DNA of 64,000 nt from Streptomyces atroolivaceus (lineage in GTDB: Bacteria; Actinomycetota; Actinomycetes; Streptomycetales; Streptomycetaceae), in contig NZ_JNXG01000005.1 in assembly GCF_000717025.1 (NCBI RefSeq), positions 1 to 64,000 of the forward strand, given 5' to 3'. Below, one piece after another: positions 53,959-61,585 of the stretch (position 1 is the first letter of the stretch; every line of letters begins with the position of its first letter). Below the pieces are notes generated by a model that worked only from the letters and a program-made list of their open reading frames with translations, was not told the DNA's origin and made no database searches. The position numbers were made by a program, and so were the translations under genes.

Positions 53959-55446
53959 ATGCAGCGTCCTCTTCAGCGCGACACCACACGCACGGGCCAT
54001 GCCGTCGTCATCGGCGGTGGCATCGCCGGACTCGCCGCCGCCCACCGGCTGTTGGCCTCCGGCCTCCGGGTCACGGTCCTGGAGGCGACCGAGCGGCTCG
54101 GAGGCAAGCTGATGACCGGCGAGATCGCCGGCACCCGGGTCGACCTCGGCGCCGAGTCGATGCTCGCGCGCCGGCCGGAAGCGGTCGACCTGGCCCGCTC
54201 GGCCGGACTCGGCGACCGGCTCCGGCCGCCTGCCACCGCCACCGCCTCGGTATGGACCCGTGACGCACTGCGCCCCATGCCCAAGGGACACGTGATGGGC
54301 GTCCCTGGCGACCCCGCGGCGCTCGGCGGCCTTCTCTCGCCCGAGGGCCTGGCCAGGATCGCCGAGGAGCGCGACCTCACCCCGACCGCCGTCGGCGACG
54401 ACGTCGCCGTCGGCTCGTACGTCGCCGACCGGCTCGGACGTGAGGTCGTCGACCGGCTCGTGGAGCCGCTGCTGGGCGGGGTGTACGCGGGTGACGCCTA
54501 CCGGATCTCGATGCGTGCGGCCGTGCCGCAGCTGTTCGAGGCCGTGAAGGAGGGCGGCCCGCTCCTCGACGGCGTACTCCGCATCCAGGAGAGGGCTGCC
54601 GCCCGGGAGCAGACCGGACCGGTCTTCCAAGGCATCGAGGGGGGTATCGGAACCCTGCCGGGCGCGGTGGCCGGCACTGTACGGGCCGGGGGCGGCGAGA
54701 TCCTCACGGAGACCCCGGTGCTCGGCCTGACCCGGACCGGCGGGGGCTGGGACGTGCGCACCGACAGCGGGGTGGTCACCGCCGACGCCATCGTCCTGGC
54801 CACCCCCGCCTGGTCCGCTTCGACCCTGCTCGCCGCCGAGTGCCCGGCCGCCTCGGTCGAGCTCGCCGCCGTGGAGTACGCGTCGATGGCCCTGGTGACC
54901 ATGGCCTTCCGGCGCACCGACATCGAGAACACCGAGGCGCTCCGGGAGCGCTCCGGATTCCTCGTACCGCCCGTCGACGGCCGCACGATCAAGGCCGCCA
55001 CCTTCTCCAGCAACAAGTGGCAGTGGGTCGCCGACGCGGCCCCCGACCTCTTCGTGCTGCGTACCTCCGTCGGCCGCTACGGCGAGGAGGAACACCTCCA
55101 CCGGGAGGACTCCGAGCTCGTCGCGGCGTCCCTGGGCGATCTCGCGTCCGCGACCGGACTGGCGGCCCGGCCCGTGGACACCGAGGTCACCCGGTGGATC
55201 GGCGGGCTGCCCCAGTACCCGGTGGGTCATCTCACCCGGGTCGCCCGGATCCGCGACGAGGTCGCCAAGCTGCCCGGGCTGCGGGTGTGCGGAGCGGTCT
55301 ACGACGGTGTCGGGATCCCGGCCTGCGTCGCGAGCGCGCACCGTGCCGCGGACGAGATCGTCCAGGAACTCACGGGGCCGGCCGCGGGAGAGATCGACAA
55401 CACGTGGACCCGGGTTCGGGGCACCGGTGGCGAGGCGGGACAATAG
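53959..55446 (+). CDS. hemY: Coproporphyrinogen III oxidase / protoporphyrinogen oxidase, HemY type (495 aa)
   Basis: FAD-dependent oxidase. The dinucleotide-binding motif [18 protein letters not shown] is at residues 14-31, followed by [11 protein letters not shown] and [28 protein letters not shown] and the C-terminal [26 protein letters not shown] are characteristic. In actinobacteria this enzyme oxidises coproporphyrinogen III in the coproporphyrin-dependent pathway (established), which agrees with the hemQ gene 5 bp downstream. ATG 53959. Synonyms: hemG, cgoX. Confidence 0.92.
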
Positions 55447-55450
55447 CCGT

Positions 55451-56164
55451 ATGAGTGCGCCAGAAAAGCTTCCGAACGCAGGCAAGAAGGCCAAGGACCT
55501 CAACGAGGTCATCCGCTACACCCTGTGGTCCGTCTTCCGGCTGAAGGACGTCCTTCCCGTGGACCGCGCCGGTTACGCCGACGAGGTCCAGGAGCTGTTC
55601 GACCAGCTCGGGGCCAAGGACGTCACGGTCCGCGGCACCTACGACGTGTCCGGTCTGCGGGCCGACGCCGATCTGATGATCTGGTGGCACGCCGAGACCT
55701 CCGACGAGCTCCAGGAGGCGTACAACCTCTTCCGGCGCACGAAGCTGGGCCGCGCGCTCGAGCCGGTCTGGTCGAACATGGCGCTGCACCGCCCCGCCGA
55801 GTTCAACAAGTCGCACGTGCCGGCCTTCCTGGCCGACGAGACCCCGCGCGACTACATCAGCGTGTACCCCTTCGTGCGCAGCTACGACTGGTACCTGCTG
55901 CCCGACGAGGACCGGCGCCGTATGCTCGCGGACCACGGGAAGATGGCCCGTGGTTACCCCGACGTCCGTGCCAACACGGTCGCCTCCTTCTCGCTGGGCG
56001 ACTACGAGTGGGTCCTCGCCTTCGAGGCCGACGAGCTCTACCGCATCGTCGACCTCATGCGTCACCTGAGGGCCTCCGAGGCGCGGCTGCACGTACGTGA
56101 GGAGGTCCCGTTCTACACGGGGCGCAGGAAGTCCGTCGCAGAATTGGTGGCCGGACTCGCATAG
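55451..56164 (+). CDS. hemQ: Coproheme decarboxylase HemQ/ChdC (237 aa)
   Basis: Chlorite-dismutase-family enzyme that decarboxylates coproheme to haem b, the last step of the Gram-positive pathway. Visible: [50 protein letters not shown] with the candidate catalytic Tyr residues (139/145), and the haem-side His in [15 protein letters not shown] 55451 is 5 bp after hemY, so the two are co-transcribed. Cytoplasmic pentamer in studied homologues. Confidence 0.93.
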
Positions 56165-56441: not shown

Positions 56442-57218
56442 TCAGCCTCCGGTCCGCGCCCCGCTCAGCAGGGCCGCGCGCAGGCCGGGGTCCTCCAGCG
56501 CTCCCACGCCTCGTACCGCCACCGCCGCCAGGAGGTCGCGGTCCGCGCCGTACGTGGGGGCGGGCAGCGAGTCCAGCCAGTGCTGCCCGGAGGGGGAGGC
56601 CCACGGGCTGTACGGGTGGCTCTCCACCCGCGCGATGGCCAGGCAGCCCAGCGTCAGTACGAGCGGCAGCCCGAACCAGGCGGCCACCGGACCGGCGTAC
56701 CCCGTCTCCTGACCGGGCATCAGCACGGCGGCGGCCGCCAGGACCACCACGAGCACCGCGGCACCCCGCACGCTCCGCACCGCCGAATCGAGGCTCGTCC
56801 GCGCCCCGTGCGGTACGGCCAGGCCCGCCGCGACGAGCCGGTCGGCGAGGGAGCGTACGGCGTCGGCTGCTGCGGCGGCGGCGCGTATGGGGGCTATCCG
56901 GGACTGGCCTTCCGGGCCGATCGCGCGGATGACCGTGCGTTCGACCTCGTCCCGTCCCTCCGGGTCGACGACCGTGGCCCAGCCCGTGTGAGCGAGCAGC
57001 AGCCGGCGCCGCAGGTGCATGGAGACCAGCGCCAGATCGGCCACCCGCTGCGGGCCGCCGGCCAGGAACGCCGTCTCGTACAGGCTGAGTTCAGGGGAGA
57101 CGGGCGCCCGTGCGGCGCCGGGAGGCCGCAGGGCGGCACTCGCGGTGAGGAGGCACAGCCGGATGCAGGAGACGGCGGCCGCGCACCATGCGACGAGAAG
57201 GAGGAGGACCCAGAGCAT
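56442..57218 (-). CDS. TIGR04222-type membrane protein without Cys tail (258 aa)
   Basis: N-terminal TM helix (WVLLLLVAWCAAAVSCIRLCLL, with three Cys), a cytoplasmic helical domain about 40-140 with the family motif YETAFLAGGPQRVADLALVSM, two further TM segments (AAVLVVVLAAAAVLM; AAWFGLPLVLTLGCLAIA) and a final GVGALEDPGLRAALL segment. It is a paralog of the next protein (EEAFLSGGPARVVDAALTRM, GLGALPDPELQGQLV) but stops where that one's Cys-rich tail begins. 117 bp downstream of it on the same strand. Function unknown; possible partner of the tailed protein. Confidence 0.78.
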   Translation of the reverse strand: MLWVLLLLVAWCAAAVSCIRLCLLTASAALRPPGAARAPVSPELSLYETAFLAGGPQRVADLALVSMHLRRRLLLAHTGWATVVDPEGRDEVERTVIRAIGPEGQSRIAPIRAAAAAADAVRSLADRLVAAGLAVPHGARTSLDSAVRSVRGAAVLVVVLAAAAVLMPGQETGYAGPVAAWFGLPLVLTLGCLAIARVESHPYSPWASPSGQHWLDSLPAPTYGADRDLLAAVAVRGVGALEDPGLRAALLSGARTGG

Positions 57219-57335
57219 GGCGGAGTTCTATGCGAAACCCGCAGGGAAGCGCCATGGGTTGTTCACGATTTGGACGAATCCCGGTCACAGGCGGTCATCG
57301 GTGGCTGAATGTCGCGCATGAAGACTCCGCGCCCT

Positions 57336-58361
57336 TCATGAGCTGCTGCCGCAACTGGAACCCCCGCCGCCGCTCGACCCACTGCTGCAGCTGGAGCCGC
57401 CGCTGCTGCCACAACTGGACCCGCTGCTGCCGCAGCTCGATCCCGAGCTGCACGTGGAGCCCGTTCCCGAGTCGCCGCCCCCTCCGGTGGAACCGCCGCA
57501 GCCGCCGCCGCCCGGCCCCACCCCCGCGCACCACAGCACCGGCACGAACGCGGCCGCGGCGGCGGGCGAGTACGAGGACGAGGAGGCCGACGGGGTACGC
57601 CGCGTGGGCCGTTGCCGGGCGGCGGCCACCAACTGCCCCTGGAGCTCGGGGTCGGGGAGTGCCCCCAGCCCCTGGGTGGCCACCAGGTGGGCCGGATCGG
57701 TCACATGGGCGTTGGCCAGCCGGTAGCTGTCGGCGGCCCTGCGCCCCGCCATGGTGAGCCGTGCCCTGGCCGCCGCCGCGGTGGCCAGACCGGCCCAGGC
57801 CCCGATCACGAGCGCGGGCAGCACCTTCAGGAAGAAGGGGAACGGGATGCCCGCGTACCCGTCGTGCAGGGCGTACTGCCCGATGGTCAGGGCGATGCTG
57901 ACCGGGAACCCCACGATGCATCCGATGCCCAGGGTGAGTGCCCAGGCGCGGCGGGCCCGGCTCTCGCCGGGTGCGACCAGCAGCCCGCGGGCGGCCAGAC
58001 CGTCGCCGATCTCCTGCACGGCCGGATGCCGCATGACGGTCTCCCGCAGGGTGTGCAGGGCGCCGTTCGGGGCCACGGCCAGCTCCTGGAGCACGGCACG
58101 CTCCACCGCGTCTCGGGCATCGTCCCGCTGGACCGCGACGATGCCGGGTCCACCGACGGCCAGCCGCCCGTCCGAGTGCATGCGGGTGAGCGCGGCGTCC
58201 ACCACCCTGGCGGGGCCGCCGCTGAGGAACGCCTCCTCGGAGAGGTCGTGCACATACAGGGCCGTGCCGCTGCCCCGCAGACCGGCGCGGCGCGTCGCGA
58301 GGACCAGGAGCGTCGAGGAGGCGGCCACGGCGAGAGTCAGCAGAAGAGCAAGAGCGTTCAT
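57336..58361 (-). CDS. TIGR04222-type membrane protein with Cys/Ser/Gly-rich tail; candidate MNIO substrate (341 aa)
   Basis: TM1 about 4-22, helical domain 30-135 with EEAFLSGGPARVVDAALTRM, TM2 about 140-162, TM3 about 173-198, then GLGALPDPEL (231-240) and a low-complexity tail 277-341 with seven cysteines (278, 288, 304, 310, 317, 325, 337) in repeats such as SSCGSSG. The positive-inside rule puts the first domain and the tail in the cytoplasm. ATG 58361 (GGAAGG 9 bp upstream) is 5 bp after the stop of the DUF692 gene; GTG 58370 would overlap it. DUF692 enzymes modify Cys or Asn residues in peptide tails in methanobactin, 3-thiaglutamate and bufferin systems, so this tail is the natural substrate candidate. 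That role is inference. Confidence 0.82.
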   Translation of the reverse strand: MNALALLLTLAVAASSTLLVLATRRAGLRGSGTALYVHDLSEEAFLSGGPARVVDAALTRMHSDGRLAVGGPGIVAVQRDDARDAVERAVLQELAVAPNGALHTLRETVMRHPAVQEIGDGLAARGLLVAPGESRARRAWALTLGIGCIVGFPVSIALTIGQYALHDGYAGIPFPFFLKVLPALVIGAWAGLATAAAARARLTMAGRRAADSYRLANAHVTDPAHLVATQGLGALPDPELQGQLVAAARQRPTRRTPSASSSSYSPAAAAAFVPVLWCAGVGPGGGGCGGSTGGGGDSGTGSTCSSGSSCGSSGSSCGSSGGSSCSSGSSGGGGSSCGSSS

Positions 58362-58366
58362 CACGG

Positions 58367-59659
58367 TCACCTTCCGAGGAGCGCGTTACGGGCGGCGTGG
58401 ACCAGACGGGTCACCCGGCGCGGTGGACGGGAGGCGGCGCGCTCCTGCCACCAGCGCGTCAGCTTCCGGCGGGCCGCGTCATCGGCCGGCCGGCCCGTGA
58501 CGAGGAGGTGCTCGGCGAAGCCGAGCGCGTCGCGGCGGTAACCGGCGGACATCGGCCGGTTCCTGGCGTACGAGAGGAACGCCTCGCGGTAGTCGTCGCC
58601 GAGGAACCCGGGCAGCTCGGGCGCGACCTTGGCGACGACGGCGGCCCGCTTCGCGGCCAAGGCCCGGCTCTGCACCTCCAGCCGCCGGTGGTCGAAGCCG
58701 TCCGGCGCGGGAGTACCGGCCACGAGCGCGGAGAGCAGAGCGGTCTGCGCCACGGCGGTCCGCTCGCGGCCCCCGGCGGTGCGGGAGGACGGTTCCGGGG
58801 CCCGCGCGGGCCGTGGCCGCACGGCCCTGTGCCCTGAGGATGCCTCGCTCAGCGTGGCCCGGATCGCGCTCAGTTCACCCGCCAGCTCCTCGGCCGGCGG
58901 GAAGTCGTCGTCGCGCTCCAGAAGGACCCCCGGCGGGTCGACGCGGGAGCGGAGCTCGCCCAGCACGTCCAGGACGGGACGCGTCACGGGGTGGGCGTGC
59001 GTGTCGTGCCAGACGCCGTCCTTCTCGACGCCGCCCGCCACATGCACGTACGCGATGGCCTCCACCGGCAGCTCGTCCAGTGCGGTCGCGGGGTCCTCGC
59101 CGCGGTTGACGTGGTTGGTGTGCAGGTTGGCGACGTCGATCAGCAGCCGTACGCCGGTGCGCTCGACCAGCTCCGCCAGGAACTGCCCCTCGGTCATCTC
59201 CTCGTCGGGCCAGGAGATCAACGCGGCGATGTTCTCCAGGGCAAGCGGGACGGGCAGCGAGTCCTGTGCGATGCGCACGTTCTCGCACAGCACGTCCAGC
59301 GCGTCCCAGGTCCGCGGTACGGGCAGCAGATGGCCCGCTTCCAGCAGCGGCGAGGCGGTGAGCGGCCCTCCCGCGCGTACGAAGGCGATGTGCTCCGTGA
59401 CCAGGGGCGTACCCAGCAGTCCGGCACGCGCGGCCAGAGCGGCGAGACGGCCGGGATCGGGGCGGTCGGCCCCGCCCAGGCCCAGCGAGACCCCGTGCGG
59501 CACGACCGTGACCCCGCGCTCCCGGAGGCGCACGAGGGACTCGGGGAGATGATCCGTGCAGAGGTTCTCCGCGACCGCCTCGACCCAGTCGATCCCCGGC
59601 AGCGCCTCGATGACGTCCGCGATCTCCGGCCGCCACCCGATGCCCGTTCCCAGCTTCAT
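58367..59659 (-). CDS. DUF692 multinuclear non-haem iron oxidative enzyme (MNIO) with fused C-terminal domain (430 aa)
   Basis: Residues 1-270 are the DUF692 TIM barrel with every expected ligand position: His55 (VPHGVSLG), His90 (TEHIAF), Glu142/Asn143 (ALENIA), Asp175/Asn178/His180 (LLIDVANLH), His183, His206 (YVHVAGG), Asp219/His221/His223 (DTHAHPV) and Glu248 (LLERDDDFP). Residues 271-302 are a linker. Residues 303-408 form an added helical domain ([12 protein letters not shown]...[38 protein letters not shown]) that resembles in size and pattern the separate partner proteins (DUF2063/BufC, TglI) of other MNIO systems, here fused. ATG 59659 has GGGAGGGG 5 bp upstream. Lead gene of an operon with the Cys-tailed protein; ECF-type promoter upstream. 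Confidence 0.88.
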
Positions 59660-59725
59660 GGTGTCCCCTCCCCGTTCCGTGCAGGGGTGATGGCCCAGCC
59701 GACTGCCGGCGAACCCGGAAGCGGG

Positions 59726-59752
59726 GACGTTCAGAGCTTCATTTGAGGTTCC
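59726..59752 (-). promoter_or_regulatory. ECF-sigma-type promoter of the DUF692 operon
   Basis: On the minus strand GGAAC (59752-59748), 18-bp spacer, CGTC (59729-59726), about 67 bp upstream of the ATG. GGAAC/CGTC is the usual pattern for Streptomyces ECF sigma factors of the envelope-stress group (SigE-like). Only pattern evidence. Confidence 0.5.
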
Positions 59753-59840: not shown

Positions 59841-60596
59841 TCAGGGCTGTGGCAGCGGAGCCATGGTCGGTGGCACCGGGCGGGAGGTGAACGACTGGTC
59901 GCCGCTCGGAGTCACCGGCACCGGGGCCGGCGGGACGCCGCCGCCCGGCGGCATGGGCGGGCCCGACGGACTGGCTGTGGAGGCGCCGGCCGCCTCGCGC
60001 GCCAGGCCGTCGAAGTCGACGAATCCGGTGCGCTCCAGCATCGTGATGTGGTCGAGCACCGTCTGGTTGGCGTCGGAGGCGAGCTGCCGGATCAGCGCGT
60101 TGCGCGTGGTGTGCCGGACCTGTGCGATCAGCGCGAACACCTTGCCGTGCGCGGCGCGCAGGAGGTTGGCGAACTTCTGCTCGTACTCCTGGCCACCCGT
60201 GGCGGTGAGCTCCCTGAGCCAGCCCTGCTGCTGCTCCGTCGGCTGGTTCGGGAGTTCCACCCCGAGCTTGGCGGCCACGTCGCGGGCCCGCCGGTCCAGG
60301 TCCGTGTGGCCCACCACCAGATGGTCGCCGGCGAGCTTCACCCCCTCGCTCGGCGCTCGCTCGATGGCCTGCTGTCCCGCGGGCAGTTCCCACAGCCCCG
60401 CGAGGCGCACCTTGATCAGGAAGTCCCGGTCGGTCGCCGAGAGCGGGCCCCACTGGGTGGCGACGCTCGACGCGTTCAGGTTGGCCTCGCCGGTGCCGGA
60501 GCGGTCGGCGTAGGACCACACGGGAAAGGCGAGCGCGCCGAGCGTGGCGACCAGCGCGGCGATGATGAGGGCCGTTCCGTTGATGCGTCGCAGCAA
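59841..60596 (-). CDS. DUF4142-type exported protein (251 aa)
   Basis: TTG 60596 with GGGAG 6 bp upstream gives [23 protein letters not shown], an N-terminal signal anchor; an upstream in-frame GTG (60641) lacks a ribosome site. The DUF4142 ferritin-like helical domain covers about 60-200 ([66 protein letters not shown] with several His/Glu). The last 50 residues are Pro-rich ([18 protein letters not shown]). Extracytoplasmic, probably wall-associated; function unknown. Same strand and 180 bp upstream of the DUF692 gene; the promoter at 59726 suggests a separate transcript. Confidence 0.78.
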
Positions 60597-60746
60597 GATG
60601 TCTCCCGGGCAGGTACGTGACAGCGTCGAATCAACCGCCAACCGGCTCGTCGTTCAACCTACTTGGCGGTAATGCCGGTGCGGCAGTACCGGGAGATACG
60701 TATGTCGGCGCAGGGATGTTCAGCCGATGTCGGGCAGCGGGTCAGG

Positions 60747-61511
60747 TCAGCGGCGCAGGGCCGGGTGGTCGGCGACGACGGTGCAGGAGCCGGGGGCCAC
60801 CTCGGTGAAGCCCGCGTCCCGCACCACCGGCAGCCCACTCGCGGTGAGTTCGCGCCAGCGGGCGGTGTCCGGGGTGGCGACGGAGAGCGGGAACCCCGCC
60901 TCGCGCCACGCCTTGCGCTCCGCGTCCGACAGTTCCCACCAGGCGAGCTGGGCGCCGTGCCCGGCCTGAGCCATCGCCTTGCCCGCCGACATGGCGACGT
61001 CCGGATTCATCCAGAGCACGGGACCGGCCGGATCGGGTGCCGCCGGAGCCTGGGGGTCGTCCAGGTCCGTGCCCGAGACCTGGAGCTTGGCCAGCTCCTT
61101 GGGCCAGCCGTCCAGGGGCACCGGAGGGAACACCCTGACCTCCGCGTGCTCGCCCGTGACCGTGATCCCGGGCAGCGTGGAGGCCTTCCGCCACTCCGCG
61201 CCGCGCGCCCGCCGGACCACCTTGCGGATACGGGCGTCCTGCCATTCGCGCACGGCCCGCGCCCACTCGCCCTCGGCCCTGCCCTCGTCCTCGCCCTGGG
61301 CGCGCGGGTCCGAGAGGATCGTGAGCACCGCACGGGCGGCGGTCACCAGGGCGTCGTTGCGCGCCGGGGGGTCGGTCTTCTCCAGGTGCACCACCAGAGG
61401 CAGGACGAACTGCGGGGCTTCGTCACGGGCCGTCGGCTCCGTACGGAACGGGCTGCCGGCGGAGGCTTCCGGTGCTGCGGGAAGGGGCTCGGGAATGCTG
61501 TCGCTGCTCAC
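60747..61511 (-). CDS. Peptidyl-tRNA hydrolase PTH2-family protein (254 aa)
   Basis: The C-terminal 100 residues carry the archaeal/eukaryal-type Pth2 pattern: VLWMNPDVAMSAGKAMAQAGHGAQLAWW, corresponding to the Lys/Gln/His-containing first helix of Pth2. The N-terminal 140 residues are an actinobacterial extension with FVLPLVVHLEKTDPPARNDALVTAARAVL. Cytoplasmic; expected to cleave peptidyl-tRNA, or act only as a related protein; the bacterial Pth1 would be elsewhere. GTG 61511. Divergent from the AIM24 gene with a 74-bp gap. Confidence 0.75.
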   Translation of the reverse strand: MSSDSIPEPLPAAPEASAGSPFRTEPTARDEAPQFVLPLVVHLEKTDPPARNDALVTAARAVLTILSDPRAQGEDEGRAEGEWARAVREWQDARIRKVVRRARGAEWRKASTLPGITVTGEHAEVRVFPPVPLDGWPKELAKLQVSGTDLDDPQAPAAPDPAGPVLWMNPDVAMSAGKAMAQAGHGAQLAWWELSDAERKAWREAGFPLSVATPDTARWRELTASGLPVVRDAGFTEVAPGSCTVVADHPALRR

Positions 61512-61585
61512 CCGACCCAGTCTGCCAGGCCCCTCCGACAACCTGTTCTTGGCGGAACGGTGGGCTCCGGGTGAGGATGCACAGC

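What the first reader, a model, noticed from the sequence alone, without database searches (positions are those of the whole stretch)
56442..59752. MNIO (DUF692) enzyme with built-in partner domain beside a membrane protein with a seven-cysteine tail: candidate new peptide-modification system
Seen: an intact DUF692 barrel (all metal-ligand positions) fused to an extra helical domain, followed 5 bp later by a TIGR04222-type membrane protein whose last 65 residues are Cys/Ser/Gly repeats with seven Cys, then a tail-less paralog. Known: DUF692 enzymes (MbnB, TglH, BufB) oxidatively modify residues in precursor peptides with a separate partner protein. Inference: the tail is the substrate, the fused C-terminal domain replaces the partner, and the product is a membrane-tethered modified peptide (metal binding or redox). 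I know no characterised system of this layout.
Basis: partly seen in the sequence, partly recalled or inferred. Interest (0 to 1): 0.88.

Follow-up and report, generated by a model that had tools for sequence, protein, structure and literature searches.

The report
Cysteine-tail modifying enzyme with fused partner
A soil bacterium carries an iron enzyme fused to its own helper domain next to a membrane protein with a cysteine-rich tail; comparison with related bacteria suggests that the enzyme chemically modifies such tails, which appear on several unrelated proteins.

Summary
The window encodes an intact MNIO (DUF692) barrel with a C-terminal extension, then 5 bp later a TIGR04222 membrane protein with seven Cys in its last 65 residues, then a tail-less paralog. 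The TIGR04222-MNIO association is already published (PMC12452194, 2025), which left open how loci without a visible partner gene would work. The extension answers part of that. It is homologous to a small separate gene that accompanies unfused MNIOs. All 62 MNIOs in this clade of my sample carry the domain, 33 fused and 29 separate, with at least 4 forced changes between the two states. Its model's best structural matches are the MNIO partners TglI and MbnC, although the scores are modest. The Cys/Gly/Ser tail sits on several carrier types next to the enzyme, including short single-TM proteins in Frankia relatives, mostly encoded between enzyme and partner, so the tail is the best substrate candidate. 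Charge distribution predicts a cytoplasmic tail, against the published periplasmic reading. Against the substrate idea: 14 of 24 evaluable Streptomyces MNIO loci have no linked Cys tail. No chemistry was tested. Verdict: a new variant of a known kind.

The parts
58367..59659 (-). MNIO::PME fusion enzyme, 430 aa (P0001)
   Evidence: PF05114 E=1.4e-76; homologues of the C-terminal part
58853..59647 (-). MNIO (DUF692) TIM-barrel domain, residues 5-269, ligand positions intact
58373..58783 (-). partner (PME-like) domain, six helices, residues about 293-429
   Evidence: homologous to standalone genes beside unfused MNIOs; model pLDDT 89.1; best matches TglI and MbnC
57336..58361 (-). TIGR04222 protein with three clear TM segments and Cys-rich C-terminal tail (P0002)
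   Evidence: 151 bits, cut-off 43; hydropathy, which also shows a weak fourth hydrophobic stretch (1.41)
57339..57533 (-). WCA-headed Cys/Ser/Gly tail, residues 277-341, seven Cys: candidate substrate
56442..57218 (-). tail-less TIGR04222 paralog (P0003)
   Evidence: 157.3 bits
59730..59750 (-). conserved upstream box (AACCTCAAATGAAGCTCTGAA), ending about 70 bp before the MNIO start; candidate promoter or operator
   Evidence: function inferred
59841..60602 (-). DUF4142 protein, conserved neighbour in Streptomyces (start codon not settled); role unknown
   Evidence: PF13628 E=1.6e-18; its cluster occurs in 15 of 83 loci clustered
60747..61541 (-). PTH2 (peptidyl-tRNA hydrolase-like) protein, conserved neighbour (start codon not settled)
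   Evidence: PF01981 E=3.8e-9; its cluster occurs in 23 of 83 loci clustered

Best explanation
This is an actinobacterial MNIO protein-modification system in which the enzyme and its partner have been fused. Shown by sequence comparison: the C-terminal domain of the MNIO is the same domain that other Actinomycetota encode as a separate gene beside the MNIO. Inferred: the domain does what MbnC, TglI and HvfC do, that is, it supports the active iron state and helps to hold the substrate. The barrel then oxidises Cys residues in the Cys-Gly repeats of the C-terminal tail of the neighbouring protein. The nearest NCBIfam model is the bufferin maturase, so a Cys-derived thiooxazole-type heterocycle is the likeliest product (inferred). 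The tail stays attached to a membrane protein, and charge distribution predicts that it faces the cytoplasm, where the enzyme is. The product would be a membrane-tethered metal-binding or redox tail. The carrier matters less than the tail, since unrelated carriers bear it.
Confidence: 0.72

Rival explanations
1. The MNIO modifies a different substrate (a small peptide or protein encoded elsewhere), and the Cys tail is an independent metal-binding or disulphide tail that merely shares the operon.
For: 14 of 24 evaluable Streptomyces keep an MNIO with intact ligand positions and no linked Cys tail. PMC12452194 notes that a third of genomes with TIGR04222 genes have no MNIO gene.
Against: Cys tails are nearly confined to MNIO-bearing genomes among those examined (43 of 61 against 1 of 17), and the tail recurs on unrelated carriers next to the enzyme; in L086 and L090 the carrier gene overlaps the MNIO stop by 4 nt.
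Confidence: 0.2
2. The C-terminal extension is not a partner but only a structural or DNA-binding appendix, and the MNIO works alone or with an unknown partner.
Against: It is present with 62 of 62 clade MNIOs as fused domain or neighbouring gene, and the three best chains are MNIO partners.
Confidence: 0.06
3. The tail is modified but faces the cell exterior, as PMC12452194 proposes, rather than the cytoplasm.
For: Their topology prediction; a fourth hydrophobic stretch with hydropathy up to 2.46 (L115, family f3) in several proteins. In 4 of 35 Cys-tailed proteins K+R before TM1 exceeds that after TM1.
Against: In 34 of 35 Cys-tailed proteins the mean K+R of the flanks before TM2 and after TM3 exceeds that of the TM2-TM3 loop, with one tie; in all 56 three-TM proteins it is 53 for and 2 against. 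Single-TM carriers have Arg-rich sequence after the TM.
Confidence: 0.25
4. Low-complexity tail by repeat slippage without function.
For: Tails vary in length and repeat number even between close loci (L102 against L103).
Against: Codon make-up disfavours drift; Cys-Gly pairs recur across families.
Confidence: 0.05

Closest known systems
TIGR04222-associated MNIO loci of PMC12452194 (Antoine et al. 2025)
   Same: same membrane-protein family, Cys-rich Ser/Gly tails, neighbouring MNIO, mostly Actinomycetota; proposed as probable substrates
   Different: the sections and passages I read do not report the partner fused to the MNIO, the single-TM carriers encoded after the MNIO, or a cytoplasmic tail; they place the tail outside
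PME-type 2 partner proteins (same paper)
   Same: small helical DUF2063-like proteins without the DUF2063 signature, encoded after MNIO genes
   Different: here the domain is fused to the C-terminus of the enzyme in Streptomyces and, separately on the tree, in some Frankia relatives
HvfB-HvfC engineered fusion (PMC13419390)
   Same: enzyme followed by partner in one chain; the fusion raised activity
   Different: artificial; its precursor is a secreted protein with EGKCG repeats, and HvfC is RRE-domain-containing
MovX and ChrH (as described in PMC13419390)
   Same: MNIOs with an extra domain in the same chain
   Different: [quoted passage not shown] a DUF2063-like partner is not named for either in the passage seen
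Bufferins and oxazolins (BufABC, HvfABC)
   Same: Cys residues modified by related MNIOs with a partner
   Different: their precursors are Sec-exported; here the carriers are membrane or soluble proteins, and P0002 has no DUF2282 hit

Membership tests
MNIO (PF05114) | MbnB_TglH_ChrH barrel above the curated cut-off | tested here: met
   257.6 bits, cut-off 25
MNIO (PF05114) | conserved His/Asp/Glu iron ligands | tested here: met
   alignments to solved MNIOs (which residues are ligands: recall)
MNIO (PF05114) | iron- and oxygen-dependent oxidation of a peptide | not testable with these tools
   needs biochemistry
TIGR04222 | NCBIfam domain above cut-off | tested here: met
   151 and 157.3 bits, cut-off 43
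PME-type 2 partner | encoded beside an MNIO, or part of it | tested here: met
   62 of 62 clade MNIOs, two of them with partial domains
PME-type 2 partner | no DUF2063 Pfam signature | tested here: met
   window domain: 0 Pfam families up to E=10; DUF2063 hit in 3 of 48 relatives, best E=0.0011
PME-type 2 partner | fold related to NGO1945 (3dee) or TglI | tested here: inconclusive
   [not shown]
Bufferin maturase BufB (NF050167) | equivalog score above 310 | tested here: not met
   175.3 bits
Bufferin (Buf1) precursor | DUF2282 domain in the precursor | tested here: not met
   P0002 and P0003 have no Pfam family up to E=10
RiPP precursor | modified core, with or without leader removal | not testable with these tools
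   needs mass spectrometry

The most novel reading that the evidence does not exclude
A portable Cys-Gly tail is the shared substrate of an actinobacterial MNIO clade. It has been attached to at least four carrier types (three-TM TIGR04222 proteins, short TIGR04222 forms, single-TM mini-proteins mostly encoded between enzyme and partner genes, and a larger protein without a known domain), and the enzyme has repeatedly gained or lost fusion to its partner. The product is a protein-bound, membrane-anchored metal- or redox-active tail on the cytoplasmic face, not a released or exported peptide.
Probability: 0.4. Interest if true: 0.78.

Novelty: new variant of a known kind. Interest (0 to 1): 0.6.

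Why it matters
PMC12452194 says that many TIGR04222-MNIO loci seem to lack a partner gene and that whether and how their precursors are modified is open. A fused partner answers this for the Streptomyces and some Frankia-type loci and gives a single-chain enzyme, convenient for expression and spectroscopy. If tails are modified in place on membrane proteins, MNIO chemistry extends from released or exported peptides to anchored proteins. The Frankia-type mini-proteins, under 120 residues, would be the easiest substrates to test.

Tried and rejected
Full-length structure prediction of P0001 with 18 near relatives (82-92% identical) failed (mean pLDDT 46.3), so enzyme-partner packing was not assessed. 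The solved-structure sequence search with the partner profile found only a homeobox chain at E=0.43, judged chance. NGO1945 (3dee) does not appear in the structural list. A homologue search with a Frankia-type mini-protein returned one weak low-complexity hit and was not used. The idea that tail-less Streptomyces loci keep their substrate as a single-Cys soluble relative elsewhere was tested: strong matches in 4 of 28 genomes (G161, G182, G246, G403), weaker two-piece matches in G452 and G486, which have linked tails anyway, and a weak partial match in G495 with no Cys/Gly ending in the frames I read. So it does not explain most of the gap. A link of TIGR04222 to DUF2207 was weak (1 of 7 proteins, E=0.046) and dropped. 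My first ligand check by regular expressions was too strict and was replaced by column counts. The tail count (43 of 62 loci) includes the chance frame in L085, so 42 of 62 loci have a linked tail; the genome count of 43 of 61 leaves L085's genome out and adds tails found at other fetched loci of the same genomes. Fisher was first run with 19 MNIO-less genomes and corrected to the 17 with a TIGR04222 hit by my profile. Left out: one MNIO hit (L146, E=5.9e-8) from the tree; G555 and fragments in G521 and G468:C116 were not fetched; L147 was fetched but gave no hit. Of 20 control loci, L159, L166 and L171 gave no hit with my profile; L166 is a second locus of G467. The partner profile was built from Streptomyces C-termini and then iterated, so distant partners may be missed.

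Full report
OBSERVATION. The MNIO gene lies at 58367-59659 (-) and encodes 430 residues; PF05114 covers residues 5-269 at E=1.4e-76. The tailed TIGR04222 protein (57336-58361) starts 5 bp after the MNIO stop, and its last 65 residues contain seven Cys. The tail-less paralog (56442-57218) follows; both pass the TIGR04222 cut-off. In the assembly this is the only place with a PF05114 match and the only place with TIGR04222 matches (two). Upstream on the same strand lie a DUF4142 gene and a PTH2-like gene; their clusters occur in 15 and 23 of 83 loci clustered.

WHAT WAS KNOWN. Two papers in the held library mention TIGR04222. PMC12452194 (abstract; sections 13, 15, 17, 18 and 21 read; sections 16, 19 and 20 seen as passages) reports that TIGR04222 proteins, mostly of Actinomycetota, often neighbour MNIOs, have Cys-containing Ser/Gly-rich C-termini and in part are likely MNIO substrates. 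It predicts PME-type 2 partners in at least 10% of TIGR04222 clusters. It also says that many such clusters seem to lack partner genes, and that whether and how their precursors are modified is open. In what I saw of it, the MNIO fusions named are MNIO-nitroreductase proteins and the extra domain of MovX. So the association itself is not new. My searches for further reports were made; (MNIO with Frankia) found none, and the titles listed in the others show no natural MNIO-partner fusion, but I opened few of those papers and the library misses most subscription journals.

THE EXTENSION IS A PARTNER DOMAIN. I searched 296 genomes of the class: 66 have PF05114 and 100 have TIGR04222 at E<=0.001, 74 of them over its cut-off. 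I fetched the loci and searched them with profiles of the barrel and of the extension, then iterated the extension profile. In the 29 split loci the MNIO ends 2-21 residues after the barrel match, and a gene homologous to the extension follows. A tree of 73 barrels (quick method) places the 62 MNIOs with this domain in one group (SH-aLRT 96). Of these, 33 are fused (23 Streptomyces, 10 in family f85) and 29 split, in eleven family codes. The two states need 6 changes, at least 4 forced by starred branches. The other 11 barrels have no such domain in my search. Two partner domains are partial (L104, L126). Named relatives of a family f85 enzyme include Frankia, Pseudofrankia, Parafrankia and Protofrankia. 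In one search the five listed relatives of 447-475 aa, and one of 346 aa, carry the precomputed label PF26136, as do the 120 listed homologues of the extension. That accession is absent from the held Pfam, so I cannot say what it is called. All 80 named Streptomyces loci are fused; these were the best 80 of 419 relatives, so they are biased to close kin.

THE TAIL. With a Cys/Gly/Ser tail criterion on the strand of the MNIO, 42 of 62 clade loci have a linked tail, and 43 of 61 genomes with a clade MNIO have a Cys-tail protein in the fetched loci. Of 17 MNIO-less genomes whose TIGR04222 protein I could examine, one has it (G362), and there the gene lies at a contig end. Fisher p=1.6e-6, not corrected for kinship or for the divergence of TIGR04222 subfamilies. 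The carriers differ: three-TM TIGR04222 proteins in most loci; short TIGR04222 forms (L082, L123); single-TM proteins of 83-119 residues encoded between MNIO and partner in family f85 (L086, L090, L100, L102, L103) and one after the partner in family f7 (L105); a 120-residue reading frame in family f5 (L133, start not settled); and a protein of about 450 residues upstream of a fused enzyme (L095). One example each of the last three kinds (L086, L133, L095) has no Pfam hit up to E=0.1. The mini-genes in L086 and L090 overlap the MNIO stop by 4 nt, and their codon differences by position are 10, 3 and 17, as expected of a coding sequence. Cys is followed by Gly in 176 of 202 cases in 45 tails, against a Gly fraction of 51%.

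TOPOLOGY. In 56 TIGR04222 proteins with three clear TM segments the mean K+R is 1.0 before TM1, 2.6 after TM1, 2.9 before TM2, 0.6 between TM2 and TM3 and 3.0 after TM3; the TM2/TM3 comparison goes 53 for and 2 against, the TM1 comparison 42 for and 6 against (start codons were approximate). For the 35 with Cys tails the flanks of TM2 and TM3 beat the loop in 34, with one tie. By the positive-inside rule (established knowledge) the tail is cytoplasmic. The single-TM carriers have Arg-rich sequence after the TM, giving the same orientation. This disagrees with PMC12452194. Caveat: several proteins have a further hydrophobic stretch before the tail.

AGAINST. Among 25 Streptomyces MNIOs of the clade, 10 have the linked tail, 14 lack it and one is at a contig end. 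Thirteen of the 14, together with the contig-end locus, form a 14-row branch of the tree (support 92); the fourteenth, L075, lies elsewhere. In six tail-less loci I read, a DUF4142-like gene lies between the MNIO and the tail-less TIGR04222 gene (L073, L077, L079, L081, L087, L140), and in two the tail-less gene follows directly (L080, L083). Their ligand positions are intact. Four of these genomes have an unlinked soluble relative ending in a single Cys within Gly; the other ten gave no strong match. Either the substrate lies elsewhere, or it is not the tail. In two further genomes outside Streptomyces the tail at the MNIO locus has no Cys (G451, G327). The G327 locus (L143; contig length equal to that of the Frankia alni ACN14a record) has a truncated MNIO and a frame-broken, Cys-less mini-gene, consistent with joint decay but only one case; G451 (L091) has intact ligands and stays unexplained.

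VERDICT. New variant of a known kind. The likeliest working is partner-fused MNIO oxidation of Cys-Gly repeats on an anchored tail. Chemistry is inferred from the nearest NCBIfam model, the bufferin maturase (175.3 bits, below its 310 cut-off).

Noticed in passing
window 59730-59750 (-) and upstream of MNIO genes in Streptomyces: A conserved box (CCTCAAATGTTGCTCTGA, up to 2 mismatches) occurs once per genome in 20 of 27 Streptomyces searched; by comparison of coordinates 19 of the 20 lie shortly upstream of the MNIO gene, and the one in G539 does not. In 80 named loci 55 have it with at most 3 mismatches, 40-400 bp upstream; the other 25 have a best match with 4-5 mismatches, 71-135 bp upstream (no chance control). 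Flanking GGAAC and CGTC suggest an ECF-type promoter (inference from recall); the scan for sigma-70 promoters found none.
   Followed up: partly
window 53959-56164 (+): A chlorite-dismutase-family gene (HemQ-like by recall) and a flavin amine oxidase-like gene (HemY-like by recall) lie convergent to the locus; their clusters occur in 24 and 18 of 83 loci clustered. A tie to haem or iron is possible but may be plain synteny.
   Followed up: partly
window 59841-60602 (-) and L073, L077, L079, L081, L087, L140: A DUF4142 gene sits upstream of the MNIO in the window, but a gene like it lies between the MNIO and the tail-less TIGR04222 gene in several Streptomyces without a linked tail (cluster membership shown for L073, the others by similarity on reading).
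   Followed up: partly
L252, L253, L254, L255: Soluble TIGR04222-like proteins unlinked to the MNIO end in a Gly-rich stretch with a single Cys; strong matches in 4 of 28 Streptomyces genomes.
   Followed up: partly
literature, PMC4991794: SCO6045, which I recall as a gene of this region in S. coelicolor but did not verify, is listed with a 3.01-fold change in the HbpS-SenS-SenR redox-sensing RNA-Seq table (one passage seen).
   Followed up: no
L116, L117, L118, L141: Another MNIO branch in the same sample has no such partner domain in my search; a small gene precedes the MNIO in L116, in a cluster found in four loci. Not studied.
   Followed up: no
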